This document shows, piece after piece, positions 1 to 59,701 of a stretch of DNA of 64,000 nucleotides. Both the position numbers and the translations under genes were made by a program. The stretch is from Citrus sinensis. Taxonomy: Eukaryota; Streptophyta; Magnoliopsida; Sapindales; Rutaceae. The notes below the pieces were generated by a model. The model did not search any database, was not told the origin of the DNA, and was given only the letters and a program-made list of their open reading frames with translations. How positions within the stretch are numbered: position 1 is the first letter of the stretch; each line of letters opens with the position of its first letter. The DNA is taken from positions 31,947,501-32,011,500 of the forward strand of contig NC_068560.1 in the NCBI RefSeq assembly GCF_022201045.2, given 5' to 3'.

Positions 1-3000
1 TTTCTTTCCCATGATAATAATACTTCTCCTTCCAAGTATGGTATTAGTGAAAATGGTTTTACTTCTGATATTTTCAGCTCTGGCACTCCGAGAAGCCGGC
101 AAAACTTTACAATGCTATTTTTGAAGTTCAGTTTAATTGCGATTGTTTTTCTTGCCCTTACTGGATCATTTTGGTGGACAATTTCAATTTCAACCTCATC
201 TAGAGGTCACATATATCATGGCTATAGGAGACTTCAAGAGCAACTTGTATCCGATTTATGGGATATTGGGGAGATTTCTCTGGGTTCTTCAAGGTCGAAA
301 GATTTGGAGTTTTGTTCTGAGGACTTTGAAAACTATGTTCCTTGCTTCAACGAATCTCGGAATCTTGCTTTGGGTTATTCCAATGGCGATGAGGTTGATA
401 GACATTGTGGACAAGAGCTGAAGCAACATTGTTTAGTTCTTCCACCAGTAAAATACAGAATTCCACTTAGGTGGCCCACTGGAAGAGATGTTATCTGGGT
501 TTCTAATGTTAAAATTACTGCACAGGAGGTACTTTCCTCTGGCAGCTTGACCAAGAGGTTAGCAATGCTTTCTTTTCTTATCAAGCTCTCTTTTTGAACT
601 GTACATTTCAGTCCATTTATTAATTTCATGTGGTTGCAGGATGATGATGCTGGAGGAAGAACAGATTTCGTTTCGTTCAGCCTCGCTAATTTTTGATGGG
701 GTTGAAGACTACTCACATCAAATAGCGGAAATGATTGGGCTGAGAAACGAATCTAATTTCATACTGGCTGGGGTAAGTGCTGATTATGCAATGTTGGAAC
801 CACAGAAGATATAGTCTTTTCAATTCGAATTCATTTCATATTTCTAGGCTCATTCCTGCCCATTATATTTATATGCCTTAGGTCGTAGCATTGTTACTTA
901 ACTTACTTTTAAGCTCAAAAAGGAGTTTTACCAATTCTGGCTGTCTTGCAAATCGAATATCCAATTGTTCCTTCAGCCAGAATCTGTTGTAGCTATTACC
1001 AACAAAACTTCATAACACAACATAATCTGTTTGACTGCATTAAATGATTTACTGAGTTGCTTTGATGTCCAGATCATGTTGTAGATAGATAATGTCTATG
1101 TTACTCGGAATTCCCTGAAGAAAATTTTTGCCAATCAATCATGATATTTGGACATCATCATATTTTCTATTCGCCAAGACAATTATTAAGTGTTAAAAAT
1201 TTTTGTAGGTAAGAACCATCTTGGATATAGGATGTGGATACGGTAGCTTTGGAGCACATCTCTTTTCCAAAGAGCTCTTAACAATGTGCATTGCAAATTA
1301 TGAGGCCTCAGGTAGTCAAGTTCAACTAACTCTTGAAAGAGGGCTTCCTGCGATGATTGGATCTTTTGCGTCCAAACAGTTGCCATATCCATCACTTTCT
1401 TTTGATATGTTGCATTGTGCACGCTGTGGCGTTGACTGGGACCAAAAAGGTAAATGTCAAAAGTTTTTGGGAAGTGATACTTGATATAATCTGGGGTGTA
1501 GTAATTAAATATGTAATTTCCCATCCATTGTGTTGTTTGTTATTTTATTTGCGAGTGGTAAATCTACTTTATATTGATCACCACAGCAAATATACATTTA
1601 AATGATGATATGTGTGACCTACCGACCATATCACTTCTGCACTTAACTACTAATCCAAGGGTTATCTTTTTATTTTATTTTTAAAAATTTAATCTTCCAT
1701 TTGTATATCCTGAAGGTACCTTATGAAATTATACTTGCATTGTAATGTAATTTATTTTCTTCTTATGGATTTTCTGAGTGGAGATTTATAACAAGGTTTT
1801 GCTGTCCTTCACTCAGCTGGCTGAAAGCAATTGCAATCAGTTCAGTATCAAGGAATTTACAGAAGTCATATGTGAACTTTGTTTTGGGCTGCGTTTTATT
1901 AAGTGACAGTCAATAAATATGTTTACTTACCACCTTGTTTTATTGCTGATATTCATTCTCCTTTTTGATGGCTTAGTTCTGATGGCAACTGATGCAAATG
2001 CCTTCAAGATGATATTTAGAAAAATATCTGTAGTGTGGATCATAAAACTTAGTTGTTTGGATGTACATGGTCAAAAGTGAGGTTATCCTTATTACAGAGA
2101 GGATATTGTTGTCCTTAAAATGTATTCTAAATTAAGCTTTATTATAAATTAATTTATTATTTAGAAGTTCGATGTTGGATTCTGTAAATGGTCTACCTTC
2201 GAAAAGCTTCATTTCGGGTTTTTGGTTCACATAGTGTCTTTGTGTAGATCTTTGAACTGAATTTATCTTTATGCAATGTGGGACAGATGGAATTCTCTTA
2301 CTTGAAGTTGACAGAGTTTTGAAGCCTGGTGGATACTTTGTTTGGACTTCGCCACTCACCAATCCCCAGGCTTTCCTTCGTAACAAGGAGAATCAGAAAA
2401 GGTGGAACTTTGTTCGTGACTTTGTGGAAAATCTCTGTTGGGAGTTAGTATCACAACAGGATGAAACTGTTGTGTGGAAAAAGACGAGTAAAGCTAGTTG
2501 TTATAGTTCTAGGTGAGGGAACAACCATATATTAATTCTGTGTATTTTTTATTTTTTATTTACTTTTTTCCATGCTGCATAATCTTTCAAAAGTGTTTAA
2601 TTATGCTGAATCAATAATAAATGTTGTACACATGTGGATCTTTCATTACTTGAGAATATTACTGGTCCTAATTTTGGTACCAACTGGTTGTATGTTTAGG
2701 AAGCCTGGTTCTGGCCCTTCTATCTGCAGTAAAGGCAATGATGTTGAGTCTCCATATTATCGACCTCTCCAACCATGTATAGGAGGAACACGTAATCGCC
2801 GATGGATTCCTATTGAAGAAAGGAGAAATTGGCCGTCTAGGGCTAACTTAAACAAGAATGAACTTGCAGTATACGGTAATTATGGTGCTCTTCTGTGAGA
2901 TGGTTAAAAAAAAGGGAAAAAAAAAAGCTTTTTTTTTTGGGAGTACATATTTTCGCCATACCCCAAATCACGGAAATCAATCAACCCAGAAAGTGCTGTC

Positions 3001-4271
3001 AAAATCAACCTGCTTTTAAATTGATAACAAATGATTGTTTCTTTTATGCTCTTTCCCATTATATTCTCTCCCTTGTTTGATTTTATATATCCATTTAAAT
3101 ATTTTAACAGGTGTACATCCAGAAGAGTTTGCTGAGGATACAGAAAATTGGAAAACGGCAGTTGGTAACTTTTGGTCTCTTCTGTCACCTCTAATCTTTT
3201 CAGATCATCCAAAGAGGCCTGGAGATGAGGATCCTTCACCGCCTTATAACATGGTTAGAAATGTGCTCGACATGAATGCTCATTTTGGTGGCTTTAATTC
3301 TGCACTGTTGGAAAAAGGGAAGTCTGTGTGGGTCATGAATGTGGTCCCAACTATTGGAACCAACTACCTTCCAATGATTCTTGACAGGGGATTTGTTGGT
3401 GTATTGCATGACTGGTAAGTTTGTTTTTCTTCTGCTCCATTTTTTTTTAATTTTCTTTGATATATCACATTCCTGTTATGATTTCCCTGCATTAGCTGGA
3501 ATCTGAAATTCATGACAGTCTATTTCTGTTATGGTTTCTTGCTTAAGCTGAAATCTGAAATTCATACTGTCTCGTGCCCTGTTTTTCTGTCATTGGGGTT
3601 TCTATTGTAAACAAAGATATGATTCATGCCCACTTTGTTGATAAATCAGTGTTGGAGAATGGAGATTGATCTAGGCTACTTGTTTGCATTCCATTTGGAG
3701 GGATATTAAACATGAAATATAGTATTTTTCTAATTGGAGAAATATTTGAACTTTGGATGCACAATAATTTATGGTGTTCACTTCCTGCAGGTGTGAAGCA
3801 TTCCCAACATACCCTAGAACTTATGATCTGGTGCATGCGGAGGGACTTCTATCACTTGAATCAGGTCATCGGCATCGGTGCTCTACCCTTGACATCTTCA
3901 CAGAGATCGATCGTATACTTCGTCCAGAGGTATCCAAATCCAATTGTCCTATTTCTACATGTCATATATGCTTGCTGTGCCTGTTCACCTCTGTCCTCAA
4001 AATAAATTGTTAATGCCTGTGAATTGTTGCAAAGTACACTTAGTACGGTTGTTTTGTGTGATTGAAATCTTTTTGTGCTTTTTTGATTCATTGACAATGA
4101 TTTTTGCAACAGGGTTGGGTTATCATCCGTGACACAGCTCGTCTTATTGAATCAGCAAGAGCTCTAACTACTAGGCTGAAGTGGGACGCGCGAGTCATAG
4201 AAATTGAGAGTAACAGTGATGAGAGACTTCTTATCTGTCAGAAACCTTTTTTCAAGAGACAAGCAAGCTAA
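1..4271 (+). CDS. QUA2: QUA2/TSD2-like pectin methyltransferase, 5' partial
   Basis: Putative S-adenosylmethionine-dependent methyltransferase of the plant QUASIMODO2/TSD2 group, which methyl-esterifies homogalacturonan in the Golgi for cell adhesion. Eight exons read in frame: 1-557, 640-772, 1209-1449, 2287-2512, 2700-2875, 3111-3414, 3791-3929, 4113-4271, ending in TAA and giving 644 residues. The frame is open from base 1 and family members have a longer basic N-terminus, so the start lies outside the window. A single type II signal anchor is at window residues about 38-60. SAM motif [12 protein letters not shown], is at about 235-245, followed by the family blocks [25 protein letters not shown] and, near the C-terminus, [11 protein letters not shown]. 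Introns are 82-837 bp. The family match is very strong; QUA2 rather than a QUL paralogue is inferred from overall resemblance and from the neighbouring LRR gene. Confidence 0.93.
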
Positions 4272-5356
4272 TTCAGAGTTCTCGAAGAAAGCCTGATAAG
4301 TTATTTATATTCATTTTAAGGATGTTATTAAATCACCATAAAGCTCCACCTTCAGGAGGGGAGAACAAAATTTTGAACAGAAAGAAGAAACAGAGGAAAG
4401 CCAAACAAACAAATCTTGGTGGAACCAACCACAGCTCCCATGGAGCCGCAAGGCGTAAATGGGGCCATGTAATTACTCAAAAATTAAGGCGCTATTGAAA
4501 TGAAAAGTATAGGATTAGATTTAAAGATTTTTCTTCCTGTTGTCCCATTATATAACTGTACAACTACATGATTAAGATTGTGAAGATAATTACAAATAAA
4601 GGTTATTTACTGTAGTATATAAAAGAAACCGGTGAATGAAATTCTTTTCTTCATTTTCTCATGTCATTTTCTTGCATTTGCTGAGCATTTATTCTGTAGA
4701 GTTTGATGTGTTTATGCAAGAATTTAATCAGGTTCTTTGCAATAGAGAATCAAAAAGTGAATGGGGTATTTGGGTACCCATGCCATTCTACACAACTCCT
4801 GTTTTATTTACAACAACATGGATGTCGTACCTTCTCCTTTTTTAGAGTAGTTTGGTAGCTTTTTTTCACTTTCCTGGAGAACATGATAAGGTAATCTCAT
4901 GTTGATTTCATGATCATAGCAAGTGAAAAAAACTTAATGATCAAATGAATTGTGTGCTTCTTCTAACGGACGGTGCTTCAACTTAAAATATTTATAAAAC
5001 ACCCATTTATGCTTGCAACAATCCAACACTTACTGTTCATAGTCACTGATTGCAGTAAGAAGCTAAGCATCCGTTTTGAATTTAAGGGGAATATCCCCTA
5101 TAATATAGGGTGGGCAGCTGCCCCAAACGCAGCCTAAGAGCATATAGGGGGCAATTATGTTTCAGTTTTGCTTTGAAAGTAAACAAAGTGTTTGGCAAGC
5201 ATCCACTTCTGTTTGGTAGAAAATAATTAGACAGCTAATGATTACATTAAAAAAAAAATGAAATTTCTGAATCAAAACCTCAGAACTTTATTGTGTTTAT
5301 TACGCCGAGCATTTTCTGTAGATAAATTTATAAACACGGAACATGACCATCAGCAT
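4272..5356. other. 3' UTR and spacer between QUA2-like gene and tRNA-Tyr
   Basis: The first few hundred bases after the stop are probably 3' UTR of the methyltransferase gene. The rest is AT-rich spacer. No reading frame here resembles a known protein. A short segment around 5068-5136 has loosely inverted ends (GCATCCGTTTTG and CCCAAACGCAGCC), like the termini of many small plant DNA elements, but I could not define a target-site duplication. Confidence 0.5.
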
Positions 5357-5450
5357 CCGACCTTAGCTCAGTTGGCAGAGCGGAGGACTGTAGTAGCTTA
5401 AAATCCTGAAAGTTATCCTTAGGTCGCTGGTTCGAATCCGGCAGGTCGGA
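5357..5450 (+). tRNA. tRNA-Tyr (GUA anticodon) with intron
   Basis: A complete cloverleaf can be drawn. The acceptor stem CCGACCT (5357-5363) pairs with AGGTCGG, with discriminator A at 5450. The D-arm contains AGCTCAGTTGGCAGAGC. Anticodon stem GAGGA pairs with TCCTT (5416-5420), and the T-arm is GCTGG-TTCGAAT-CCGGC. Anticodon GTA is at 5390-5392. An intron of about 21 nt (5394-5414) sits one base 3' of the anticodon, the standard eukaryotic position; tRNA-Tyr is one of the two plant tRNA families that normally carry introns. T residues at 5451-5457 can serve as the RNA polymerase III terminator. A-box and B-box are internal and intact, so the gene looks functional. Confidence 0.95.
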
Positions 5451-5457
5451 TTTTTTT
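5451..5457 (+). terminator. Pol III T-run terminator of tRNA-Tyr
   Basis: Seven T residues directly follow the discriminator base of the tRNA. That is the usual RNA polymerase III stop signal. Confidence 0.7.
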
Positions 5458-5599
5458 AAATCTTTTTAATCAGCTGTTCAAAGCCTTTGTATCCAGCGAC
5501 GATCATCTCCAATTAAAAGTCCTAATCCGACGACAATTGCGCCATTAATCGTTTTTGGCGCCGAACGCCCGATCACCGTTGATAATTAACCATGTACAC

Positions 5600-5607
5600 T
5601 ATAAATA
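5600..5607 (+). promoter_or_regulatory. Candidate TATA box of PORR gene
   Basis: TATAAATA lies about 100 bp before the ATG at 5706, in the short spacer after the tRNA gene. Spacing suits a short 5' UTR. No transcript evidence is available, so this is a motif-and-position call. Confidence 0.4.
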
Positions 5608-5705
5608 TCCTTCAGCATTGGAATAAAACAGGAAAATGGTGAATCTGCATTGCGCAGTGTAATGAAGTGATTAGCTTCAATTGATCAATTCCCAATTCGA
5701 TATTC

Positions 5706-6887
5706 ATGGCTTGGCGCCTCTTCTTAACTAAAATCCTGACACCTACCCTTCCGAACCCTAATTTTCTCAAAACCTCTCCATTCTCCACCTCATTTCTCGT
5801 CACTAAAATCCCCAAAAGGCTTCGAAAAAAACACAAAAAGCCCGATTCTCCCCGAACCCGGCCAGTACAACCCGACTCGGCTCGAATCCCTCACTTCGAA
5901 TCGATCCTCAATCGCGACTCCGTCTTCCGATTCCTCACGAAAACAAAAGAATTCCTCTCCAAACAGCCCGAACGCGTCCTCCGCCTCGATGACGCCGGCA
6001 AACTCTACCGCGAGCTCGGGTTTCCTCGCGGCCGCAAAGTCGTCAAGTCAATTCAACGCCATCCTTTAATCTTCGATGTCTACCGCCACGTGGACAACAA
6101 AATGTGGCTTGGCTTCACTGATTTCGTGGAGCGATTGCTGGAGGAAGAGAGGTCGATCATGGAGTCGATGGAAACCGATAGGGTTAATAAGGTAAGAAAA
6201 TTGTTGATGATTTCAAAAGAAAAGAGGATTCCTTTGAGCAAAATTTATCATAACAGGTTACTGTTTGGAATTCCTGAAGATTTCAGGGACCGAGTTGCAA
6301 AATTCCCTGAATATTTTCGGATTGTGGTTGAAAATGATGGCAAGAGGATTCTTGAATTGGTTAATTGGGATCCCACTTTAGCTGTAAGTGAGTTAGAGAG
6401 AGAGTTTATTGTTAATGAGGATAAGGTCAAGAAAGCATTTAAGTTCCCGGTGAAGTATGGGAAAGATTTGGGATTGGATGAGAGCGACACGAGAAAGCTT
6501 AATTTGTTGAACACATTACCGTTGGTTTCTCCATATAGCGATGGGTGGAAGTTTGATATGTGGAGTTTGGAGGCAGAGAAGTATAGGGTAGGTGTTGTAC
6601 ATGAGTTTTTGAGTTTGACTCTAGAGAAGAGAGCGAGTATACATAATATAGTGGAGTTTAAAGAGGAGTTTAGCTTGACTAGGCGGACGTATGAGATGCT
6701 TAAGAAGCAGCCACGGACTTTTCATTTAGCTGGAACGGAGATGAATTGGGCAGTGTTTTTGAAGGATGCTTATGGTGAGAATGGGATTTTAATTCAGAAG
6801 GATCCACAGGTTGTTTTCAATGAGAAGTTGCGTAAGTTTGCCCAAATGCAGGAAGGGGAAGTGGTTTCTGGTGTTGGGGAGGAATGA
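5706..6887 (+). CDS. PORR-domain organelle RNA-binding protein
   Basis: Single-exon gene for a 393-residue protein of the PORR family (plant organelle RNA recognition; WTF1/WTF9/RPD1 group), known for roles in group II intron splicing in chloroplasts or mitochondria. The N-terminus (residues 1-45) is rich in Arg, Ser, Thr and Pro and poor in acidic residues, as in an organelle transit peptide; mitochondrial targeting is likely but unproven. The PORR domain covers about residues 70-380, with hallmarks such as RHPLIFDVYRH, KFPEYFRIV and WSLEAEKYRVG. ATG at 5706 is the first in frame and fits the transit peptide. The 5' half has more C and G than the 3' half. Within the family, the closest match in my memory is the group near At4g08940, next to CRY1 and an APRL gene in Arabidopsis, but I cannot assign an orthologue or target intron. 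Confidence 0.88.
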   Translation: MAWRLFLTKILTPTLPNPNFLKTSPFSTSFLVTKIPKRLRKKHKKPDSPRTRPVQPDSARIPHFESILNRDSVFRFLTKTKEFLSKQPERVLRLDDAGKLYRELGFPRGRKVVKSIQRHPLIFDVYRHVDNKMWLGFTDFVERLLEEERSIMESMETDRVNKVRKLLMISKEKRIPLSKIYHNRLLFGIPEDFRDRVAKFPEYFRIVVENDGKRILELVNWDPTLAVSELEREFIVNEDKVKKAFKFPVKYGKDLGLDESDTRKLNLLNTLPLVSPYSDGWKFDMWSLEAEKYRVGVVHEFLSLTLEKRASIHNIVEFKEEFSLTRRTYEMLKKQPRTFHLAGTEMNWAVFLKDAYGENGILIQKDPQVVFNEKLRKFAQMQEGEVVSGVGEE

Positions 6888-8160: not shown

Positions 8161-8161
<1 letters not shown>

Positions 8162-8192
<31 letters not shown>

Positions 8193-8193
8193 A
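8162..8193. repeat. Compound (TA)n(TG)n microsatellite
   Basis: About six TA units run into about ten TG units. Length is likely polymorphic. Confidence 0.9.
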
Positions 8194-8861: not shown

Positions 8862-9108
8862 GTATTTGGAATTGAGGTTAGACAATTATAGTTTTAAAAA
8901 TTATAATACTAAAATATTTGTTAGAATATATTGATATGATGTTTCACTTATATAATGAGAAAATTATTATATCTTTAATAATTTTATTAAAATTATTATT
9001 TAAAATTTTTTTAAGATATACTATTAACTTTTGTTTCATAATTGTAATTTTTTTATATAATAATTATAATTTAAAAACTACAACACTTTAATTTCAAATA
9101 GACCCTAA
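8862..9108. mobile_element. AT-rich MITE, copy 1
   Basis: Short non-coding AT-rich element with imperfect terminal inverted repeats: TATTTGGAATTGAGGT at the left, and at the right a segment whose reverse complement reads TATTTGAAATTAAAGT. The interior (about 8930-9030) closely matches 43265-43385 in the same orientation, sharing GATATGAT..TTTCACTTATATAATGA and ATTATATCTTTAATAATTTT. Flanks TAGATTAAA and TAAGATTTA may be a decayed target-site duplication. It has no coding capacity, so it would have been moved by a transposase in trans. Confidence 0.7.
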
Positions 9109-9589: not shown

Positions 9590-12033
9590 CTACCGAGATG
9601 AAGAAGCTTGTGCAGATGATACCATCTTTGAGACTACCGTCTTCGAGGCCAAATGGCTATGATTTCGGGTCTTGGACTTGCTCCTGCTTCTCTGCCCAAT
9701 GCTCGTACTGCTCCTTTGATTGCTGGAGGGTAGTGATCCACTTCGGCCTGTTCTCTTTACTGCTTTTCTTTGAGAGCTCTGACTACTGTTTCCAAGTACA
9801 GCTTTGGCAATGCTATCTGTGAGCAACTCTCGTGCTCTTTGTGGTTTGATGGGCTGCTTGTTTAGATACACAAGTTTAGGAAGGAGACTACAGACTGCCT
9901 TGCGCAGCTGGTCGTCACTGATGTTGCTCTGAATGGGATTACCCAACAGGTTCAGAGCTAGCAATGACTGGTAATTAGCCACTAGCTGACCAAGAGCTTT
10001 TGTAGTAGTTATCTTGTTGAAGCTCATGTCTAGGACAGTCAACTTCAAAAGCCTATGCAGTCCCTCAATGTCACTAATCTTGTTCCCAGCAAGATAAAGT
10101 TCCTTAATTAGTGTACAGTTTGACAAGCCTGACGACATCAGAATGCAGAATGTGATTTAGAATTATACAAGTTGCAGGAGAGTCTCTTGCAGTTGGGAAT
10201 TATAATAAGAAATTCAAAAAGCTTAAACGAAAGCCAGAAAACAGGTTTACTAAGGATATTACCATGCCCAATGCGAAAAATACGGTTATAACTAAGATCA
10301 AGGACTCGCAATCGGGTCAGTTCTCGTAGTCCTTCAATAGTGTTGATCTTGTTTCTTGACAAATTGAGTGTGTGAAGGCCCTTCGGCAGTGATCCTGTGG
10401 GTATGTGGACTGCAAATAGATAAAGAAGATCAGTTAGCATTATAAAAAATATTTATTTCTAGAAACAGGAGTTGTTTTCCCCATTTTTTGGGGCCAAAAA
10501 CATACCTATAAAGTTGTTCGACAAGTTGACAGACCGGAGACTGGAGAAATGCGAGATTGTGGGAATGGCTTTCAAGCCTATACCCGCAATGTGAGCCACA
10601 GCTGAGGAAGAATTTAGAGACCGAATGACACTATTGGCGTGTAAAATTTCCTCTGATAGATTGATTTCTGAACGACGGGTCAAATGGGCAGTGCTTCTTG
10701 CCGGTGATTTACCAGTTTCAGGTGATGGTGGGAAAATGACACCTTCAGCAACCTCATCATCTTCAAATGGAGTTTCCATCCCAAGATCTTTCACCCATTC
10801 ATCTACTCTTTTGAAGGAGGATGATTCTGCTGGAAATGCAACCCATTGTCTCTGAGGCCATACAGCAGAAACTTCATTCTGAAAACCATCCCAGCTCTGC
10901 CTGTCCTCGTTGTAACTACCATTACAACCTTTGTTCAAGGATTCTCCAGTGCATGATCCAGGTGATTCTGTCTTGCTTAATTTCGTTGCTTGATTTGGCT
11001 CAAGGGTATCTGAAGTGTACCCACCTTGCTGGTTCAAGACAACAGCACGATGTGGTTGTGGCTTTAAAATCCATGGTTTGTGCAGATTCCTGTGGCTCCA
11101 AAGAAACAATTTCCACCACAACCTTCTACTCCTTGAAGGAAGAATTTGGCTCGAGGAATGCTTCTTTAGCATTACTCTATCAGCACTGAAATGGCTAGTC
11201 ACAGACATAGGACTGCCAGAATGATAATTCTCTCTTACCTTCTCAGAGAGTTCCTGCAATGCTTCAAAAGACTGAGATTTTGAAGGAGGCAATCGATCCG
11301 TTAATTTATTCAGCACTACCCTCGATTCCAGGTTAGAACAAGAACGTTTAAGCTTTGGTGAACCCCAGAACTCAGTCCTCCCAACCCCCGGATCACTAAG
11401 ATGTCCACTTTGGATCATATCAATGCCCTTCTTCTCATCTTTCTCAGCACCGTTCACTGATTGTGCATTCACCTCTGGACTAGCTGTAGTAAAATAATCT
11501 GATTTTGTGTTTCTAAGATCAAACTCCTCTTTACCAACATTCGCATCATGGGCCTGAAGATCCAAGTCAGAGAAGTCCCTCTTGATTGATGTGGTATCTT
11601 CATGCTCATCCTCCCCTTCGTATGCTATCTCAGCTGGTTCAACCCCAATAGGAATTACAGGACTCTCATGACTCATCACCTTTACATTGCAGGGGGAATT
11701 GTTCTGGATGTCATAAGGTACCGAGATGCTAAAAGATGTTGATTTTGACTCATCATTCTCAAAAGGTTTCACTGGGTGTTCAAGCTTTATTTGCAGGGCT
11801 CTAATCTTTTTTGTGTATTCAACAGATGTTGAAGATCCCTCGACTCCCTACAAGCAAAAATTCAAGGTGAAAAACTACAAAAAGGCAAAATGATGTTTGT
11901 GCTGGTGTCTGAGAGATTATAGAAGTTTGTGACTCCGTTTTGTGCAACAGTATATGCGAATATCAAGATCGATTCTTACCTTATCTTTCTTCTTCCTCCC
12001 TCCACCTAAAAAGAAGCAACTGAATTTTGCCAT
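9590..12033 (-). CDS. Leucine-rich-repeat protein (dynein light chain 1-like annotation)
   Basis: Four coding exons on the minus strand: 12033-11980, 11847-10506, 10409-10263, 10128-9590, giving 693 residues. The start MAKFSCFFLGGGRKKKDK is a small exon with a Cys-Phe patch and a basic run, typical of this plant family. Residues about 19-430 are low-complexity and probably disordered, with many Ser and charged residues. SDS22-like leucine-rich repeats follow at about 435-600 (LRSVNLSNNFI, LHTLNLSRNKI, LRVLDLSYNRI, IKELYLAGNKI, LTVLDMSFNKI, LLALNLLGNPI). The tail is Ser/Arg/Lys-rich. Databases often call such proteins 'outer arm dynein light chain 1', but flowering plants lack axonemal dynein, so only a protein-interaction scaffold can be claimed. 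A 5' UTR intron is likely, with donor at 12718. Its partner next to QUA2 in Arabidopsis is, from memory, At1g78230. Confidence 0.88.
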
Positions 12034-20288: not shown

Positions 20289-23200
20289 ATGGCCACCGCC
20301 ACCGTTGACCACCACCATCACCTCCACTATGACTCCCTCCCTTTAATCGATCTCCGCCTTCTCGCTCAATCAGAACTTCTCTCCCTCTCTCTCTGTTCTT
20401 CCCGCGTCTCCACCACCACCTCCTCCCAAAACGAAGACGAAGACGAAGTCTCCACTCCCAAAATAGACCGCTCCGTCTTCAACGAATCAGCTGGCAGCCG
20501 CAAACAAACCTTCTCACGCCTCCGCCTTGCGCCTCGCAATTCCCCCCAAATTCCACCTCAAATTCCCTACACGGCTGCTCGCGCCGAAACCCTCGACGAA
20601 GATAATCCTCAAATCGTAGGCCTATTAGAGTCTCTTTTCAATATTCAATCTCACTCGTCAAGCACAATCGTAAATGACCAGCAGTTAGTCCCTGTCCAGG
20701 TTGAGTATAAAGCTTACTTGAATGATGTGAATGTGAATGTGAATGTAGACGAGAATTTGCATGATGTTCCAATTAGTGTAGTTACTTATAGTGCAAGAAA
20801 GAGAAAGAGAGGGCGGCCGAGGAAAGATGAGATGACGTCTAGTGATAATTGGTGGTTTATCGAGAGTGAGAATAAGGTGAATGTGGTGAGCAAAAGCTCA
20901 CTTAATATTACAGATAATGTTAATGTGGTTCCTTGTAAGATAGGAAAGAGGAAGCGAGGGCGACCGAGGAAGAGTGAGAATAGAAATAATAACTTTAAAG
21001 TGAATGCGGTGAGTGAGAGCGCACCAAATGTTGGAAAGAGGGGGCCAGGGCGGCCGAGGAAAGGTGAGGGTAAGAATGGAGATAAATCTGTCAAGAAGGA
21101 GATTGTGGTTAGTGAGAGTAAAGAGGATTTGGTGAATGAGGCATTGATGGAGAACGGGGATGGGATTGCTGTGAATTTGGTTGCATTGGCAAACACGGAG
21201 GATCCTTTTGGGGAGGAGTTGAGGAGGCGAACAGGGGGGAGTGAGAAGAGAGAAGAGTTGTTAGGCTTTTTGACGGGATTAAAGGGAGTGTGGGTGAGTT
21301 ATAGGAAGAAGAGGAAGATTGTTGATGCAAGTGAATTTGGGGATGTATTGCCAAGGGGGTGGAAGCTCATGCTTTGCATCAAGAAGAAAGTGGGGCACAT
21401 GTGGTTAGGTTGTCGCCGATATATAAGGTTTCTCTCAATTATGTCTTTTACCCTGTTGTGTTCTATTAAATGCTTTATTTCCAGCATTTGCATATTTTAT
21501 TTTTGGTTACATCCACTTGCATATATGCAATCAAATATTGAACAAGTATTCTGTTTCTTAAAGTCAATTCCCCTTACTTTATTTGATGGGAATAAGAGCT
21601 ATTTGAAAATAAAAATGCTAGCATATATTATTTGGAGTCTTTATGGAATTTCTGTTTGCTGTTAGTTCACTTGTAATGCCTTATGTTTCTTCTTTGAGTG
21701 ATTAGACCAAAATTCTCATAAAACAAAACCTGTCAACACTGCTATTGAGTATGATATGGAGTTTATAGACAGCTTTTGCTGAGTCATGATTTTACCAATT
21801 CACTTTATGGGGTTATTCTGCTGGTATGATACAAGATAAGTTTCCATCCAACCAAATAAGCCAAGATTCCTATCACAACTTTCGAGATGCCATAAGTTCA
21901 GTATATGCCATGTTCCTTCCATGTTCCTTTAAGAAAAAGTAATTCTAAGCATTTAAATCAATGCTAGTGGCAGATTAACTGCTTCTGTTTTATGGAATTG
22001 TACTGAATCTTAAACATTGTAAGTGACAAAGAATACTTAGGACGTGTGGGAAGTAGCATGCTTGGCTTACCTTGTAGCATTCTAAGCAAAATTGTTTGAT
22101 TGAAAAAGTGAAAAAAGGATCGGTCGAGTTTATGAATTTTGTTATTTTCTAAATCAATGCCTTGGTGAAGAAACATAACAAGTACATGCTTGTTGAGCTG
22201 GTCGATCAGCGACCTAACTTGCCTGAAGGTGCTATAATCCTTCAGATAAATACATGATATAGAATCTACGCATTGCTCATTTGGACTGCTATATATTAGG
22301 TCTTAAGTATCTGTTGCATTTACTTGAGATTGTTATCAAACTATTATTGCCTGTTTCCATGATCATTATCATTATTAGCCAAACCCAGTTACTTTAGAGA
22401 TCTATTACTAAATCTGTGCAGACTCTGCGATCTGCATCATTCTATCCAAAAATCTACTACATTTGTTGTCTACTTTTGAACTGAGCCCTAGATACTTTGG
22501 AAGCACTGAAGTAATAATATTCAACATTATTTATTTAGTACTTGTAAATCAGAGCAATTTCCTGTATTGTAAATCAGAACAATTTCCTGTATAAGTTGTG
22601 TATTTGAAGTTTTTTTCATCAGTTTGTCTGCCCGTCGTTAGACCTCTTACCGAGTTTATCTTGTTAGGAAAGGCCATGGAAAAGATGAGGGCATAGCATG
22701 CATAATGAGACTTCTAAGTGATAATGCTTTTCTATAAACCATGCTGAAAAATATGGGTGTAAACAGAATGAGTTATTTAGACCATTGTTCTAGTAAAAGA
22801 ATTTTCTACCACAGCTGTCTTTTAGTTTATCTTCCACCACCGCCGCCTTGCCCTCCCCCCGCCGGGGACATATATTGTGTTATTTTTCAAGAATCTCATC
22901 TCATTTGGAAAAAAGTTACAAATTTTTAAGTCATCCTGATAAAGGCGTAGGGTTGCAGCTCTATCTGCTGAATTAGGATCTACATAACCCTATTTAAATG
23001 GGAAGAAAATAAGTTTTTGAATGCTGTGGAGTTATTGCTTATACTAAGAAGCCTTCTTCTTTATAGTATATACCTTTCATATCATTTATTTCATGACTCA
23101 TGTTGTGATTCTATTTTTGTGTTTGCAAAACTACATTGTTCATTTAGTGGTGAGTTGAGGCTGCAACACTATACTTACAAGTTTTAATGGTTATTTTGAA

Positions 23201-40389: not shown

Positions 40390-41640
40390 ATGTCAAGGTG
40401 CTTTAGCTTCACCGAAGCCAAGAACTGGTGCTTGAAGTCCTGTTTCAAAAGACTGGGATTCCGATCCTCAGTCACTGATCTTCAAGACGGCAGTGTCATG
40501 CACTGTTGGGTCCCCAAGACCCGAAACGACTCAAAACCGGATCTTGTCCTGATCCATGGGCTCGGCGCCAACGCATTGTGGCAATGGACTAACATAATCC
40601 CACACATGATTCACTACTTCAACGTGTACGTCCCAGACTTGCTCTTTTTTGGCGACTCGTTCACGACTCGACCTGAGCGTTCCGAGTCGTTCCAAGCTGA
40701 GTGCGTGATGAGAGTCATGGAGGCTCACTCGGTGAAGAAACTCAGCCTGGTGGGCTTGAGCTATGGTGGGTTTGTTGGGTACAGCATGGCTGCTCAGTTT
40801 AAGGAGAAGATTGAGAAGGTGGTGATATGCTGCTCTGGGGTGTGCTTAGAGGAGCAGGATTTGAGAGACAGGATGTTTAAAGTTTCTGATTTGGAAGAGG
40901 CTTCAAAGATTTTAGTGCCACAGTCGCCAGGAAAGCTTAAAGAATTGATGCGTTACACTTTCTTTAAGCGGCCTCCTTTGAGCTTGGTGCCATCGTGCTT
41001 GCTCTCCGATTACATTGATGTATGAGTAAATGTTTTTCTTTTCCTGGTTTCAACTGTTGTTGATCACACGACCAAACATTTAAGCATTATGTTTAAAAGA
41101 ACTATTTGGTTGGTTACTTGGGCAGGCAATGTGTACAGAGTATTTAGAAGAGAAGAGGGAATTGGTAAGAGCCATACCCAAAGATAGAAAGATCTCAAAC
41201 ATTGACAAGATTACCCAGGTAGATTTCCCTTCTATCTATGATTATATAGTTAGAATTAATTAATTAATCTACCAGAGTTGATTTCTCTTCTAAGCAAATG
41301 GCTTCACTTTCAATGGTAGCCCACTTTGATACTCTGGGGAGAGCATGATCAAATATTTCCATTAGAGTTGGGTCGAAGGCTGAAAAGGTAAAATCTCCAT
41401 ATCCAACAATGAACAGTGCATTCCTTATTTTGAACAAGTCACTTGGTCATCTCGTCTGAGCCTAGATTGTTGTTGAAACGCAGCCATTTGGGTGATAATG
41501 CTCAGCTCATAGTGATCAAGAAAGCAGGGCATGCTTTCAATTATGAGAAGCCAAAGGAGTTTTACAAGCACTTAAAATCCTTTCTACTTGATTCGCAGCC
41601 ATCTCCTCTTCCTCCCAGCAACCAATCCGCAAATGCTTAG
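40390..41640 (+). CDS. Alpha/beta-hydrolase superfamily protein
   Basis: Four exons (40390-41019, 41126-41218, 41320-41387, 41484-41640) encode 315 residues. The hydrolase fold is clear: oxyanion-hole strand LVLIHGLGANALWQW near residue 52, nucleophile elbow GLSYGG with Ser124, acid Asp251 in LWGEHDQIFP, and His280 in KKAGHAFNYEKP. All three catalytic residues are therefore present. These plant proteins are annotated as monoacylglycerol lipase- or esterase-like; the substrate is unknown. No signal peptide or membrane segment is evident, so a cytosolic or membrane-peripheral location is inferred. The last exon joins with AGC (Ser264), where relatives usually have Arg. From memory its Arabidopsis counterpart is At1g78210, next to a PP2C, as here. 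Confidence 0.92.
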
Positions 41641-44112: not shown

Positions 44113-47100
44113 TTATCCCCTAAATCTAACAACAACACAAGATATATCATCTTTGCTCTCTCTTTTCAATGCTTCAGCTGTTAATTGTTTGGCTGCCTTC
44201 TGTGGGTCTTTGAACTTTCTTGCAATATCCACAGCCTCTTGATTGCTCATCACCTGGTTTATTTCCACAAGAAAATGAATTCATAACGTAATTTGCAAGC
44301 ACGGGTATGCAATAGTTACACTGATGCAAGAAGAGATAAAAAGTTGAGGAAAAAATTAACTTACCTTCCAAAGACCATCACTTGCAAGGACTAGGACGTC
44401 ACTACGGCCGTCTAAGATAGTATTTTGTATGTCAGGATCTGATCGCAAATGTGATTTAAGGCTCTTGTCTCCAAAGGCACGAGAAACTGCCAGCTGCCCA
44501 TTAACTCGAGGGACATCACCTGATAAAAAGATGCAAAGACAGCAGAATTAACTATATGTAAACTGTAGCCCAATTGCCAATCTTGTCTGATCAATGCAAG
44601 AACACCAATAAAGAATTCGGTGTTGAGAGTTCAGCATAAGGAGGACACCAGAGAAAATGTACAGTTCTTCTGTTAAAGCAACAGCTTTGCAAAATATAAT
44701 GCAGCAAATCAACTAAGGAAAAATCATCACTTAATCTGCAAAAATCAAGGAGAGAAAATCTTTGATGTCTGATAAATGGGGACACATTCAAAGGTTTTCA
44801 TGGGTGTGCACGGGCATGTATGGAAGTAGAGGCACCAGTTAGCCACTAAACGGAAGTGAAAAGCATACCATCATCTATAATTTGGCCATAGTCTATTTGA
44901 GGGCATTTACTTCAAGTTCATCCCAGATATAGACATCACAATCACTTACAGAAAAGGACAAACCAAATCGATATTTCCTACCAAAATAACTTGATACTCT
45001 GACAGGTGGAATTTCATGAACCAAAAAAAAGTAAGTCTGAAAAGTATGAAACAAGGAAAATGCTCAGCAGAATTACACTTGTTTTTTTTTAAAGACCGTG
45101 CATGGGTGTGTATGGAAGAAGAGGCACCAGTTAGTCACTAAACAGAAGTGAAAAGCATACCATCATCTATAATTTGGCCATAGTCTATTTGAGGGCATTT
45201 ACTTCAAGTCATCCCAGATATAGACATCACAATCGCTTGTGGAAAAGGACAAATCAAATCGATGATTCCCACCAAAATAACTTGATACTCTGATGGGTGG
45301 AATTGAACACCAAAAAAAAAAAAAAAAGTAAGTCTGAAAAGTATGAAACAAGGAAAATGCCCAGTCGAATTACATTTTTTTTTTAACCTCGATCCACATA
45401 TTGATTAAGTACTAACTCAGACATACTAATTTGTGGTGATCATTATGATGGCTGCAATTTTCAGAGGCATTTTAAGAGATTCTGCCAAATGGCATGTAAC
45501 AATTCCTCCTAATGCCAAAGACTCCCAAAATACAAATCTGTCTTCAAAGATTTGTATACTGAAGAGCATATGTAGTTTCCTACATATTCTTCTAAATTTC
45601 CTTGTGATCTTATGAAATAATTAAGTATTCCATGGTATATCCAGACAGAGCTGTCCTTGTGACCTATAAATTCAAGAAGCCAGTATTCATTTAGGTTGCT
45701 CTTATTAAAACTAATGAAGCAGGGATACTCATTCAATCTCCTAGCGTTAAACACATTGACAGGCCTTCAAAGATCTCAGCCAAAAGCCCAAAATTCAGCA
45801 AGACGTATGAATAACATAAACAGAAATAGAAAACAGCAAGAGAGTGCTTCTCAAAAATGCACAAGAGCATAATCCTAAGTTTCATAATGAAAAGTTGGAA
45901 ATCAATGAAGTTGTCTTTCAAAACAAAGAAAAATTGTCACTCCTAAAAGCAAAATATTTCAGCACTTGATATATAATAAAAGACTGCATGGACTGCTAAC
46001 TATCTCTGATGAACTACTCCAATCCAAATGTTGCCTAGATTATTGCTAAGCTGACAATTCATTAAACAACAAATCTGGAAGATGGGAATGAGCTTATAGA
46101 AATTTCAAAAATAGTCTGAATCCAAGTAATTTTAACCAATGTAAAATGTTGCATAAACTAGAAAATGAGTCAAGTAAAATGAGGATACAAGCAAAAAGAG
46201 GATCGACAATATTTTCTAAAAATCATCAACTTTAGTCTACATGAATTCCAGAAGAATATATTTTAGTCAATAACAATAAGTAATGAACTTTCAAAACCAT
46301 GTCTGTAGTGAAAACCTGGCATATTAGAGACAAAGCCGCCTTTATCCTCAATGCTCCCTCGTTCAGTGTTCGGCTCATGGTCTGTAGTCATCTGTACTGC
46401 AACGCCAGCCGTTGAAAGAACTGCTCGAGAATCTCCAACGTTGGCTACCCATAACCTTTGACCATTTATCAAAATTGCAGTAACAGCAGTGGATCCACCC
46501 CGGCCCAAGTCAGAGCTGTGTGAGAGAATTGCTTGGTCTGTCTTCTCATAAGCTTTAGAGATAGATCTCTGGGGGTCAACCCAAAACTCTTCCTAGAATG
46601 TTAAAACGTGAAATTTCAGAAAAAAATAATCCGTAACTAAAACTCGACCTTAAAGTGTAGTTATCCATCACAATTCAAAGCAAGATCCTACCTCCTTTAG
46701 GATGTTGGAAAACAAATGCTTTTGTAGGTAGGCAGGCACAGTTTCTCCCAAATGGCCGTCATAAATAGCAAACAACCCTAATTCATGACCTTGAAGTTGC
46801 ACAAATTTTGCAACATGATAATCCTCCATGGGATGATTAGCTTTCCCTTTTACCAAGCTGAAACCAAACTTGACTAATCCAACATTGCTTCTCCCCTTAC
46901 CAGTAGATGACGAGCGTCCTCCCACAAGCTATATGGCAGAAATATGAATAAAAATATTTAACATAGTCTAGAAGAGGGGAGAAAAAGTAATTTCAATTTT
47001 AACCACCTGCATCAGACAGCTGCAATAACATTGTGCAAATGGAAAAGTAATATCAAATATAACACCCCAAGCATACAAAGAAATGAATTTAACTCCGCAT

Positions 47101-48975: not shown

Positions 48976-48978
<3 letters not shown>

Positions 48979-49014
<36 letters not shown>
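48979..49014. repeat. (GA)n microsatellite ending in poly-G
   Basis: About 14 GA units followed by about nine G residues. No gene nearby. Confidence 0.9.
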
Positions 49015-53576: not shown

Positions 53577-54852
53577 ATGGCTAGCTCACCTTCAGTTACT
53601 GTAGAATTCTCTCCTAAACATTCACTGCCTACGAAACAACCAGTTGCAGAAGAAGCTAAGGCTCATTGCCTAAAATGGCTTCCCAGCGACAGTGCTTCGC
53701 CGTCTCATTTCCAAAAGGTAACCCCAGTTAGTGACGTAAAATTAACCGCCGTGGCAAGCGTTGTTATGTCCTTATCATATGCTACGAGTTTTTTTCTAAA
53801 TCATTCTGTTAACAGATTGTTGCAGAGCTGATAGGCACGTTCATTCTCATCTTCGCGGGTTGCGGCTCTATTCTGGTTAACAAAATTCAAAGCCTTACAA
53901 TTGTCGGAATAGGGCTGGTCTGGGGTCTAGTGTTGATCGCAATGATATACACAGTTGGGCATATCTCTGGTGCACATTTCAATCCTGCTGTTACCCTTGC
54001 CTTTGCTGCCACTCGTAAACTTCCATGGAAACAGGTAAGCTAACATCGATAAGTAACCGCATGTAATTAAAAGAGAGTATTATTTATTCCTTTATGATTT
54101 TTGTCCATGGGACTATGTTTGGATTTGATTATGTAGGTCCCTATGTATATGTTGGCTCAAGTTTTGGGAGCAACACTTGCGAGTCTTACACTCAGAATAT
54201 TGTTTCACGAACAAGATAATATTCAGCCAACAGTGACTCAGTATAAAGACACAACCTCTGATCTTGAAGCTGTCGCATGGGAATTCATAGTAACTTTTAT
54301 TTTGATGTTCACAATTTCTGGTGTTGCTACTGATCACAGAGCGGTATGACAATCAATTATCGCAGTTGCTTTTGCCAGCCATTTTTTGACTTGAGCTATA
54401 ACTTCCATTCTTCGGAAATATGAATGTACTGACTCTCAACTTCATCCGATCTAACAGAGCAAAGACGTTGCTGGAGTCGTGATAGGTGTTACAGTGCTGT
54501 TTAATGTCGTTATTTCTGGGTAATTAACTCTTTTGCCAACCATTTCACCATTAAATTCTGTATAATTATTCCACTCATTTCTGGATGATGCAAAAGAAAT
54601 TATAAATTTGGTTAACACATATATTTCTGCAGGCCAATTACTGGAGCTTCAATGAACCCTGCAAGAAGCATAGGTCCTGCTGTGGTCTCTGGTGTTTACA
54701 AGAATCTCTGGGTTTATATCGTTGCTCCCATCATCGGAGCCTTGGCTGCAGCCATGGTATACAGCATACTCAGAGTACCCAAGCCAGTAGCTGAAAAGCC
54801 TGAGGAGACCAAAAGCACAATAAATCAATTGTACCCTCATGCCGACCCATAG
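53577..54852 (+). CDS. NIP-type aquaporin (subgroup I-like)
   Basis: Five exons (53577-53717, 53816-54034, 54137-54343, 54458-54519, 54633-54852) encode 282 residues. It is a nodulin 26-like intrinsic protein: six membrane helices and two intact NPA boxes, GAHFNPAVT and GASMNPARS. By alignment with soybean NOD26 the selectivity filter reads Trp (LVWGL), Val (FNVVISG), Ala and Arg (GASMNPAR), the WVAR set of subgroup I, associated with glycerol, ammonia, lactate or arsenite and low water flow. Tails are short: the usual C-terminal phosphorylated extension is reduced to [21 protein letters not shown]. Exon number and positions match NIP genes. The start ATG 53577 gives a cytosolic N-tail of about 46 residues. 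The closest NIP subclass is not settled. It is convergent with CRY1, stops 986 bp apart. Confidence 0.9.
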
Positions 54853-55838
54853 ATTAACCAGTCACTCTGCTCCACTGCCCATAAGCACCAGAGGAATGAT
54901 GCTGCGTGTCTAAAATTAGTTTACTTTAAGCCTCTGCCTAATGTTATCAGATATCATAAATCAATGTACTTTTTCATCTCAGCAAGCTTGTGTATGTCTT
55001 TTCACTCAGCATGAATCCATATATAATTTTCTTTCCTCTTTTCAGGAAAACATATAATAGCGAACCTCAAAATGAATTCCAAAATACCAGGTAGTAGCAT
55101 TTCAGAACAAGAACCTATCCTGCAACTCGCCAAACCTGTAATGACACAGTTAAATTACTTCTTAAATCTACCAGCTGAAACAAGGGAATGATTTGAAGAT
55201 GACATAAACAGGAACTACAATAAAATATCAGCCTAACCAATTCGCAAACCTGAGTTTATTAGAGGACTACACACCCCTACAATGACTCTTCTCTCCCTTA
55301 TAAGAACAACAAATACTATACACTAGAGCTATGTATATGGTACAACGAAAAAGGACAGCAGATCAGCCACCTGTACTGACATGGAGTTTCAGCCGCAGGA
55401 AGTGAACTATCAGTTTTATACTATTGAGATGAAAAGTGGGTGGATAAAGATAACATGTGACACTGGTTTATCATCCCTTTGGCGCATTGGATTGGGAAAT
55501 CATTTCATCTTTCATCTTCCCAGCTTCCAGTTTGTGTCATCTACATATGTACATATGTCTTACCTGTTAAAAGAAGAGAGATCCATGGTAAGAATAATCA
55601 AAACCTACTCATATCACGGAAAATAACACGTCCACTTTCAATGAAAGTTGTATTGACAAATATATCAGGATGCAGCTAGGAATTTCAGGAGTCATCAGTA
55701 CACTTAAAGATAGAGCAGCTATAAAAATCTAAAAATTGGATAGTATATAATTTCAGCCCTACGCCAAAAGGAAATGGTAGACAAAATTTGCAGTACTACA
55801 CAGAACCAAGGAACCTTGCCAAATACTTATAAGAATTC
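54853..55838. other. Tail-to-tail spacer between NIP and CRY1
   Basis: Contains the two 3' UTRs. Open frames at 55381-55626 and 55479-55679 are not conserved in any way I recognise. Nothing else seen. Confidence 0.5.
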
Positions 55839-58800
55839 TTACCCAGTTTGAGAAAGCCGCCTACAATTCATTATTTGGTGAGACTGTGGATGCCTCTGCA
55901 AGTAAGATGAACTCGTTCCAATGCCATTTTCATCACCTACTAGCTGCTCTGAGTAACTAGAAGTTGCAGGAGACCAAACTGGAACCACCCCTCCGTCTCT
56001 CTCTCTTCTACTAGTACTTGAAGATTCTGCTGTGGAGTCTTCAGCATTTGCCAGCACTATTGCGGCATTAAATTGTTGAAAAGCGTTGTTGTTATGAACA
56101 GTTTGGAGAACACCTTGGTTTAAAGTGTCCCTTCTAGGTTCTTGATTTACATTTGCATTTCTCGGCACTTCTGCTCTGCTTTCTTCTGCTGAATTTCGAA
56201 GCTCCAAAGAAGACTCTTCCTCTTCAACTCTCACCAAAGAAGTAGTCATGCTTGGGACCATCTGATCCTCATAACGCCGAGCTGTGGTAGGAAGGTTGTT
56301 CCTAGCAGGTTCAGGGATTTCCTCCATCTGTATGTCCGGAGGAAAGGCAATTGGGGCTGAGTCAGAGGAGTCTCCAAGACCTTCCTCAGTTCCATTCTCA
56401 ATTGCAGCTCTTGAAGCTGCTTCTTGCTGCCACATTTCTGAAAGTGCTTCGTCCAGCCTGCATTTTGCTGCGTCAATCCGTACTATGGGAAAAGGGTAAT
56501 TGGAACCCAGCTCAATGCCAGCAGCTTGGAGCACAGATTCTGGTGCATTCCATGGGTGGTGTATCCATTCAGTGGGCAGTCTGGCAAGTTCAGGGAGCCA
56601 CCGTCGTACATATTCTCCATTGGGGTCAAACTTGTAACCCTCAAACTGTTGAAATGTAGTAACAAATCAGAACATTCTTTGTGGTGAAGGCCAGTAATTT
56701 AAAGCCAAAAGGATGTAATGCATAAATCAAAATTTCAAATCCTCATTATTGCATTCTGAAACATTGTCTAGAAAGAGATGCATAGAAAAACTTATAAAAC
56801 AGGAAAACTTAAATTCGAATAAAGCCAGCAACGTGTGCTCTAGTTTTCTTGTTACTGCATTTTCAATATTATACAAGTGAGTATGACCAAGAACAGAAAC
56901 AGTTTAGAAAGAATTAACCGAGGTTAAGAAAAAAATAAAAATAAAAGGCAGTACCAAAATGAAACATGAAACATTGGTATACAAGTTCAGCCTACATAAG
57001 ATACTAGAATCAATGAGGGAAAAAGCACCGCTGAAAATATTTTCTACAGAAACTTGGTTGAGGGATCTTCACCTCTATTCACATCTCTGAGCACTAAAGG
57101 GACAGGTAACTAAGAAAAAGGTATCAGAAATGAGAAGAAGAGTCATGATTTCTATCATTAAGATTTCTTTTAAAAAAAGGTATGCAAGCAGAAATCCAAA
57201 AGTCAAATAACAGGACAGAGATGCACAAGAATTGTTAAAATTATCATCCACACCTGTGGATTGTCAATTCGGTCAAAAGCACGGCCATCAGGGATAGTAC
57301 CAGATATGTACTGCCAACCAAGAGCATCACTTTCTAAATCTGCATCCAAGAGGGTATCCCAAAAATATTTCATCCCCCATCTCCATGGAAGCTGTAGAAC
57401 TTTTACAAAGAAACTAGAAACTACTACTCGTATCCGATCATGAAGCCAACCAGTGGCCCACAACTCTCTCATGCCAGCATCCACCAGTGGATAACCAGTT
57501 CTACCTTGCCTCCATGCCTTAAAATAGCCCTCATCCACAACCCAAGAAAAGAACTTAAGGTGCCCAAGAAGAGGCCTTTCATGACTGTAAGGATGGTTAA
57601 AACTCATGTACCTTGAATATTCCCGAAGACCAATTGACTTGAGAAACAAGTTCACACTCTCATCACCAGCCTTGTTCCCTTCATTGGCCCATGAAACCTG
57701 CTTGATGCGGACAAGATGGAAGACTTTCCTCACACTAACCTCCCCAAAATGCAAATGTGGAGAGAGAAATGAGGTTGTAGCACTATCAGCCTTTCTCCGA
57801 TTCTTAGAGTACTCAATTAAAGGCCCATTAATGAAAGTGGTCAGAGCCTTATCAGCATTGCTCCAGCCAGGAGACCATGCTCGAGCAAGAAGTGCATTGC
57901 TTCCCTTCTCTGATTCATCTTCAAACACCAATGTATCTGAAGGACACCTGGACATATCACCTTAAACAGAGCGTGCAATGTTGAAAAGAAGATTAGTACA
58001 CCAGAGGGTTAAAACAGAGAAAGAAAAGACCACACAAATAATACAAACATAGGTCATAATAAAACAATATATTCAAAGCTAAATAGTATATGCCTTTAAA
58101 TCTTTTTTTTTTCAAATGACAAGTGACAATGTTGTCAACAACAACACTTGATATTTCTGAAAATAATACATGTTCATAATTCTGCAAGGCTACTACTAAT
58201 TGGACCCAAAAGGAAAACAGAGTTCACCCATAGAATATTTACTGCTCAAGCCTTAATTACACTGAATGTTTTTGAAATAATAATTTTTATTTTCCTTTTA
58301 TTAGATCTCTTAGAATGACTTCTAGGGAAAGTCCAGTCAGTGCAACTTCTTGTGGAGGCTAGCAAGTGGTTTATCGGACTAAACTTGTGGTACTTAGATA
58401 TTTAGACTATAAGTGTTGTAAATGAGTTTCCTGTGGATTAAATTCCACATAGAAAAATTGCCCTTTTATGCGGATGCTTCAAATGATTCTTGTAGTATTT
58501 CCTGAATTGAATTTTGCCGCAGTATGAAACTTCATTTCTCTAAAAGCTCGACATTTTGAGTAATCCAATGTTTAATAGCTTACAGTTCATGAAAGATCAT
58601 ATATTATTCAACAACAAAACCAAGCATCACGGCCACAAGAAATACAAACCTGAATTTATCCTCTTAGGAGGGAGAAGTGGAGCGTCAGGGTCAAAAGGCA
58701 TGCTAAGGCATTTCTCCCAGAAAGCAGCAAAGGTCGCGAAAGGTTGGCCTTGGGCATCATTTACATCCCACGGCTCATAGAGCAAGTCAGCATTAAAGGA

Positions 58801-59701
58801 GCGCACAGCTATTCCTTGAGCAGTTAGAGCCTCCTTAGCTCGGTGATCTCGAACCAGCGACAGGGGGTCTGAAAAACAGTTGAATGCAAAATTGTTTTCA
58901 TTGTTTACAAGGAGTCCAACATTTCATATGGGACATATTTCCTAAAATTCAATACCTAATCAAATAAAACATACTCAAATGAACTGAATAATAAGACCAG
59001 ATCAATAAAAGTTCGATCAGAACAATTGAGGTGTGACTATAACAATTGGAAGGGAATAAATTCCAAAATTATATAAGCGCCATTACCAAAAACAAATGAT
59101 CTCTATTAGTAAGCAATAACAGAACAATTCCCCGGCAATTGATAAAGGAACAGGAAAGACTTATCCAATCTATAAGAAGATACCGCTCACACAAATATTC
59201 AAGTAAAACATAATCATGCCATCCAAAAAGAAAACAAACTACAAAACAAATGAACCCAAAAGAAGCCCGGAAAAAAAAAATGAGAAAGGAAAATTAACAA
59301 CACAAAAGTCAACCCACATGATCCATTATCTGACTGCAAAGGAATAAATTAAAATGATCAAAAGAAAGTCAAAGGAAGGAAAGCCGACCATATAAATGGT
59401 TGAAGAAGAGCTGAGTAGCACCAGTAGCTTTAACAACCTCAAGAAGAGAAGAAACACTATCAGTTGATCTCTTAGTGACAAGAGAAGTACCAAGACTCCT
59501 CAAAGAAGAATCCAGATGAGACAAGCTGTGCTTGAGCCACCACCTAGACACTCTCCCAGGATAATAAGGACCCTCTTCTTCAGGTGCCCAAATGAAAACA
59601 GCAATTACAGCACCAGCTCTAACACCAGCTGCTAGTGCTGGATTATCTTCAACTCTTAGATCTCTTCTGAACCAAACTATGCTACAACCACGACCTGACA
59701 T
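55839..59701 (-). CDS. CRY1: Cryptochrome 1 blue-light receptor
   Basis: Four exons on the minus strand (59701-59389, 58868-58650, 57960-57254, 56645-55839) encode 681 residues, the same length I recall for Arabidopsis CRY1. The photolyase-homology region (about 1-490) opens with CSIVWFRRDLRVEDNPALAA and carries the FAD-pocket blocks SFLSPHLHFGEVSVRKVFHL, GYPLVDAGMRELWATGWLHD and LDADLESDALGWQYISGT. Trp residues of the electron-transfer chain sit in this last part. The C-terminal extension keeps the DAS motif: DQMVP at 540-544, an acidic stretch EEEESS, and STAES at 617-621, ending RRLSQTG. This tail signals through COP1/SPA. It acts in nucleus and cytosol, controlling de-etiolation, flowering and stress. 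ATG at 59701 is chosen over an upstream in-frame TTG because MSGRGCS fits the family. Every splice is consistent, so the gene looks fully functional. Confidence 0.97.

What the first reader, a model, noticed from the sequence alone, without database searches (positions are those of the whole stretch)
1..59701. One window joins three Arabidopsis neighbourhoods (fractionated synteny)
QUA2, LRR, 14-3-3, hydrolase and PP2C recall At1g78200-78240. APRL, NSE3, 14-3-3 and PP2C recall At1g34750-34780. CRY1, APRL and PORR recall At4g08920-08940. Here all occur together in about 60 kb, interleaved. The simplest reading is that this genome keeps the ancestral order, while Arabidopsis lost complementary genes after its whole-genome duplications. 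Arabidopsis positions are from memory.
Basis: partly seen in the sequence, partly recalled or inferred. Interest (0 to 1): 0.7.

Follow-up and report, generated by a model that had tools for sequence, protein, structure and literature searches.

The report
Ancestral gene neighbourhood, scattered in Arabidopsis
This stretch of a flowering-plant genome most likely keeps eleven neighbouring genes in an old order that poplar partly shares, while Arabidopsis appears to have the same genes spread over about four chromosome pieces after ancient whole-genome duplications; it is a clean example of a well-known process, not a new one.

Summary
The gene content is real. In order, the window holds a QUA2-type methyltransferase, tRNA-Tyr, PORR, LRR, MBD8-like, APRL, NSE3, epsilon-type 14-3-3, alpha/beta hydrolase, PP2C, NIP-type aquaporin and CRY1. 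The finding's list lacks the MBD8-like gene and the aquaporin.

The fractionation reading is supported. Poplar chromosome 5 holds QUA2/OSU1 (Potri.005G163900), an epsilon 14-3-3 (164500) and CRY1 (164700) in the window's order. Published synteny ties a nearby poplar 14-3-3 pair to AtGRF1, AtGRF2 and AtGRF4, whose loci (At4g09000, At1g78300, At1g35160) lie beside the three Arabidopsis segments named. I add a likely fourth segment, At1g22280-22310 (PP2C, GRF10; MBD8 by recall), which makes the four copies expected after two duplications.

Limits: 10 of 15 Arabidopsis assignments were seen in calls, two of them only in a listing; 5 are recalled. Order on the seen loci alone is weak (6 of 120 permutations). 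Only one of eleven genes was located in grape. Poplar's numbering leaves room for one gene where the window has three. No whole-genome comparison could be run. The phenomenon is textbook.

The parts
1..4271 (+). QUA2/TSD2/OSU1-type methyltransferase, eight modelled exons, cut off at the window's left edge
   Evidence: Open frame from base 1; model; Methyltransf_29 E 2.4e-148
5356..5451 (+). tRNA-Tyr (GTA)
   Evidence: ARAGORN; Rfam RF00005 at 5357-5450
5706..6887 (+). PORR-domain protein, single exon, 393 aa
   Evidence: ORF; PORR E 1.6e-97
9590..11832 (-). LRR protein, three modelled exons, start not determined
   Evidence: Model; LRR_4 E 3.4e-9
20289..25417 (+). MBD8-like gene: three AT-hook-like GRPRK motifs, then a methyl-CpG-binding domain; four modelled exons, 875 aa
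   Evidence: Model; MBD E 5.4e-8; the name MBD8 is by recall
27660..28974 (+). APRL (APR-like, thioredoxin fold), 5' part not modelled
   Evidence: Model; Thioredoxin E 5.4e-11
30864..32251 (-). NSE3-like MAGE-domain gene, five modelled exons
   Evidence: Model; MAGE E 4.7e-40
34338..36492 (+). 14-3-3 protein, epsilon type; five exons modelled, C-terminal end not modelled
   Evidence: Model; 14-3-3 E 5.8e-109; PDB ranking
40390..41640 (+). Alpha/beta hydrolase; first exon 40390-41025 or shorter, further pieces to 41637 not joined
   Evidence: Abhydrolase_1 E 7.8e-17 on 40390-41022; pieces
44113..46838 (-). PP2C phosphatase, four modelled exons, N-terminal end not modelled
   Evidence: Model; PP2C E 2.5e-55
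53577..54852 (+). NIP-type aquaporin, four exon pieces, splice model not completed
   Evidence: Pieces; MIP E 5.2e-55; the two PDB sequences at E up to 1e-30 are both NIP2-1
55839..59701 (-). CRY1 cryptochrome, four modelled exons
   Evidence: Model; FAD_binding_7 4.1e-42; Cryptochrome_C 2.7e-44; PDB

Best explanation
The window is a little-fractionated copy of a gene neighbourhood that existed before the last two whole-genome duplications of the Arabidopsis lineage. Those duplications made four copies in Arabidopsis (At1g22280-22310, At1g34750-34780, At1g78200-78240, At4g08920-08940). Each copy then lost a different, overlapping subset of genes: on the present assignments PP2C and 14-3-3 survive in three copies, APRL in two, seven genes in one and the aquaporin in none. 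Shown here: gene content and order in the window, and (from papers) the poplar QUA2 / 14-3-3 / CRY1 run and the published link of that poplar region to genes beside three of the four Arabidopsis segments. Inferred: that gene loss rather than gene movement made the Arabidopsis pattern, that the fourth segment belongs, and which duplication separated which segments.
For: Domain-confirmed gene set. Poplar: Potri.005G163900 OSU1/QUA2, 164500 epsilon 14-3-3, 164700 CRY1: nine gene numbers, window order; about 8e-6 such clusters expected by chance (copy numbers and gene total recalled). PtGRF1/2/4a,b syntenic with AtGRF1, 2 and 4, PtGRF11a,b with AtGRF11; PtGRF1/2/4b is Potri.005G162400, 15 numbers beyond poplar QUA2; the Arabidopsis loci At4g09000, At1g78300 and At1g35160 lie on the predicted side of all three named segments. 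All four Arabidopsis segments are monotonic along the window: 444 of 1,000,000 shuffles (using all 15 assignments, 5 of them recalled).
Against: With only loci seen in calls, order gives 6 of 120 permutations, which is weak. Poplar has one gene number between 14-3-3 and CRY1 where the window has three genes. PtGRF11a,b was mapped to AtGRF11 only, not to GRF10 or GRF13, so that synteny analysis does not by itself join the At1g22 segment. At1g35160 is about 38 locus numbers from At1g34780, a loose link. Of the eleven genes only the 14-3-3 was located in grape. The aquaporin has no partner in any of the four segments (recalled).
Confidence: 0.85

Rival explanations
1. The window is derived: separate neighbourhoods were joined by rearrangement in this lineage, and Arabidopsis keeps the older, separate state.
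For: Nothing found for it directly; the organism is unknown and its genome could not be searched (genome search did not complete).
Against: Poplar has QUA2, 14-3-3 and CRY1 together in the same order; shared 14-3-3 and PP2C genes in three of the Arabidopsis segments point to copies of one segment.
Confidence: 0.06
2. The segments are related, but much of the Arabidopsis pattern comes from single-gene transposition after the duplications rather than complementary loss.
For: The aquaporin and the differences between poplar and window near CRY1 show that local gene content changes.
Against: All 15 assignments are monotonic within their segments, though 5 are recalled.
Confidence: 0.06
3. Chance: large gene families make any window resemble several Arabidopsis loci.
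For: PP2C has 80 Arabidopsis members, and several family names fit many loci.
Against: Expected runs of four adjacent genes from four window families are 4.4e-5 (sizes partly recalled), and poplar shows the linkage independently.
Confidence: 0.02

Closest known systems
Fractionated synteny after the Arabidopsis alpha and beta whole-genome duplications (recalled; Bowers 2003 and Tang 2008 not read here)
   Same: One region elsewhere corresponds to several Arabidopsis regions, each with a different subset of genes in the same order.
   Different: Nothing in kind; only the gene set is particular.
Poplar chromosome 5 and 2 blocks with PtGRF11, PtGRF1/2/4 and PtGRF6/8 (PMC4395111, passages and sections 14 and 15 seen)
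   Same: QUA2, epsilon 14-3-3 and CRY1 together in the same order on chromosome 5.
   Different: Poplar has two copies from its own duplication, and room for one gene, not three, between 14-3-3 and CRY1; eight window genes were not located there.
Grape chr18 region around VviGRF11 (PMC6090852, passages seen)
   Same: An epsilon 14-3-3 followed by two non-epsilon ones, as on the poplar chromosomes.
   Different: Ten of the eleven window genes were not located in grape; whether VviGRF17 and VviGRF14 are the orthologues of the poplar genes was not tested.

Membership tests
Fractionated syntenic block (one region, several Arabidopsis copies) | The named gene families lie together in one region | tested here: met
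   eleven protein genes and a tRNA in about 60 kb.
Fractionated syntenic block (one region, several Arabidopsis copies) | Arabidopsis relatives sit at the named loci | tested here: inconclusive
   10 of 15 assignments seen at family level (two from the listing); At1g78210, At1g78230, At4g08920, At4g08930 and At1g22310 are recalled. Orthology by sequence was not tested.
Fractionated syntenic block (one region, several Arabidopsis copies) | Same gene order in each copy | tested here: inconclusive
   All four monotonic, 444 of 1,000,000 shuffles with all 15 assignments; 6 of 120 with seen loci only.
Fractionated syntenic block (one region, several Arabidopsis copies) | The joined order is present in another eudicot | tested here: met
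   Poplar: three of eleven genes, same order; the other eight not located.
Fractionated syntenic block (one region, several Arabidopsis copies) | A single block in grape | tested here: inconclusive
   VviGRF11 on chr18, in none of the three grape duplication events listed; other genes not found.
Fractionated syntenic block (one region, several Arabidopsis copies) | Published synteny joins the Arabidopsis segments to one outside region | tested here: met
   Through AtGRF1, AtGRF2 and AtGRF4 beside three segments; not shown for At1g22.
Fractionated syntenic block (one region, several Arabidopsis copies) | Ks of the retained duplicates fits the two duplications | not testable with these tools
   No Arabidopsis coding sequences are held.

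The most novel reading that the evidence does not exclude
The neighbourhood from QUA2 to CRY1 is kept together in eudicots by selection, as a shared regulatory domain for light- and chromatin-related genes (CRY1, 14-3-3, a PP2C of the phytochrome-associated kind, MBD8), and Arabidopsis is the exception that broke it.
Probability: 0.04. Interest if true: 0.55.

Novelty: already known. Interest (0 to 1): 0.2.

Why it matters
It is a compact example of why Arabidopsis relatives of adjacent genes can turn up in several places, and a warning that best-hit positions alone can make one intact region look like a patchwork. For annotation it gives positional support for naming the genes, such as the MBD8-like gene and the 14-3-3 as a likely co-orthologue of GRF10, GRF11 and GRF13. 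No new mechanism follows.

Tried and rejected
Joining by rearrangement and pure chance were considered and put low, mainly because poplar has QUA2, 14-3-3 and CRY1 together. The poplar paper's suggestion that its linked 14-3-3 genes arose by tandem duplication does not bear on the other genes.

Led nowhere: the genome search on the window's own assembly did not complete in ten attempts, so the organism is unidentified and its other segments are unexamined. Literature searches for At1g34780 with At4g08930 and for 'cryptochrome' with loci beginning VIT_18s0001g05 found no paper; the tomato search listed 25 of 35 papers, none of them holding the tomato loci asked for. At4g08930 and At1g22310 occur in none of the 23 papers. 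No PDB sequence matched the QUA2 model at E up to 0.001. The PP2C matched only general PP2C chains. NCBIfam gave thioredoxin-fold matches below their cut-offs for APRL. Twelve ORFs outside the modelled exons had no Pfam match (2, 10). Splice models failed for several genes and, to the end, for the hydrolase and the aquaporin.

Full report
Question.

Gene content. I translated all six frames, modelled exons with a simple splice-site score and scanned products against Pfam. In order: QUA2-type methyltransferase (+, cut at the window edge), tRNA-Tyr (+), PORR (+), LRR (-), MBD8-like with three GRPRK motifs (+), APRL (+), NSE3 (-), 14-3-3 (+), alpha/beta hydrolase (+), PP2C (-), NIP-type aquaporin (+), CRY1 (-). 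The CRY1 fragment matches 1u3c, Cryptochrome 1, best in the PDB set. The 14-3-3 scores best against epsilon chains; AtGRF10, 11 and 13 are epsilon-group members. Several models are incomplete at an end (QUA2, LRR, APRL, 14-3-3, PP2C) or unjoined (hydrolase, aquaporin).

Arabidopsis side. No Arabidopsis genome was available, so I used locus numbers in papers. Seen: At1g22280, At1g34750 and At1g78200 in a PP2C family table; At1g34760, At1g78220 and At1g22300 as epsilon 14-3-3 genes; At4g08940 as a PORR gene; At1g34780 as the Arabidopsis match of a Brassica PDI-family gene; At1g78240 in a paper titled for OSU1/QUA2/TSD2, and At1g34770 in a paper on NSE1 and NSE3 (both from the listing only). Recalled: At1g78210 hydrolase, At1g78230 LRR, At4g08920 CRY1, At4g08930 APRL, At1g22310 MBD8. 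That is 10 of 15 assignments seen, at family level.

A fourth segment. MBD8, recalled as At1g22310, would stand next to GRF10 (At1g22300) and close to PP2C At1g22280. That makes four segments, the number expected after two duplications (recalled). Assigned genes: At1g78 has QUA2, LRR, 14-3-3, hydrolase, PP2C; At1g34 has APRL, NSE3, 14-3-3, PP2C; At4g08 has PORR, APRL, CRY1; At1g22 has MBD8, 14-3-3, PP2C. With only loci seen in calls it is 6 of 120 permutations, so order alone is weak evidence. Clustering of content is stronger: 4.4e-5 runs of four expected, on family sizes that are mostly recalled or guessed.

Poplar. This test needs no memory of Arabidopsis. Potri.005G163900 is annotated OSU1, 164500 is the epsilon 14-3-3 PtGRF11b, 164700 is CRY1, and 164900 has AtMYB93 as its best match. 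Between QUA2 and 14-3-3 poplar has five gene numbers and the window five protein genes. Between 14-3-3 and CRY1 poplar has one number and the window three genes, so the match is imperfect. Locus numbers are only a proxy for gene counts. On chromosome 2 lie PtGRF11a (097500) and a MYB93 (096800). The other eight window genes were not located in poplar.

Published synteny. PMC4395111 used PGDD blocks and reports PtGRF11a,b syntenic with AtGRF11, and PtGRF1/2/4a,b with AtGRF1, AtGRF2 and AtGRF4. The latter poplar genes are Potri.002G099800 and 005G162400; the second is 15 numbers beyond poplar QUA2. The Arabidopsis genes are At4g09000, At1g78300 and At1g35160. Each lies on the high-number side of one of the three named segments, which is the side the poplar arrangement predicts; At1g35160 is about 38 locus numbers away, the others about six. 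This is the strongest support, and it is others' computation. It does not reach the At1g22 segment: PtGRF11a,b was matched to AtGRF11 alone.

Grape. VviGRF11 is VIT_18s0001g05720 at chr18:4.45 Mb and is in none of the three duplication events listed; VviGRF17 (06330) and VviGRF14 (07240) follow. The group order (epsilon, non-epsilon, non-epsilon) is that of poplar, but their orthology was not tested. Two other nearby loci are an ERF (05850) and a splicing factor (05550), neither among the window's genes.

Verdict. The process is well known, so interest is low. Open: the grape block, the origin of the aquaporin, and the identity of this genome.

Noticed in passing
44806-45383: A 292-base tandem duplication, two copies, 87% matches, inside an intron of the PP2C gene as modelled.
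   Followed up: no
5356-5451: tRNA-Tyr of 96 bases, long enough to hold a short intron (inferred from length), between the QUA2 and PORR genes.
   Followed up: no
20289-25417: MBD8-like gene absent from the finding's list; it adds the probable fourth Arabidopsis segment At1g22280-22310.
   Followed up: partly
53577-54852: NIP-type aquaporin without a partner in the four Arabidopsis segments (recalled): lost in all four or inserted here.
   Followed up: no
60001-64000: Low-GC stretch (0.25-0.28) beyond CRY1; the two ORFs scanned there had no Pfam match.
   Followed up: partly
outside the window (PMC4395111, PMC6090852): Three linked 14-3-3 genes, one epsilon and two non-epsilon, keep the same group order on poplar chromosomes 5 and 2 and on grape chr18.
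   Followed up: partly
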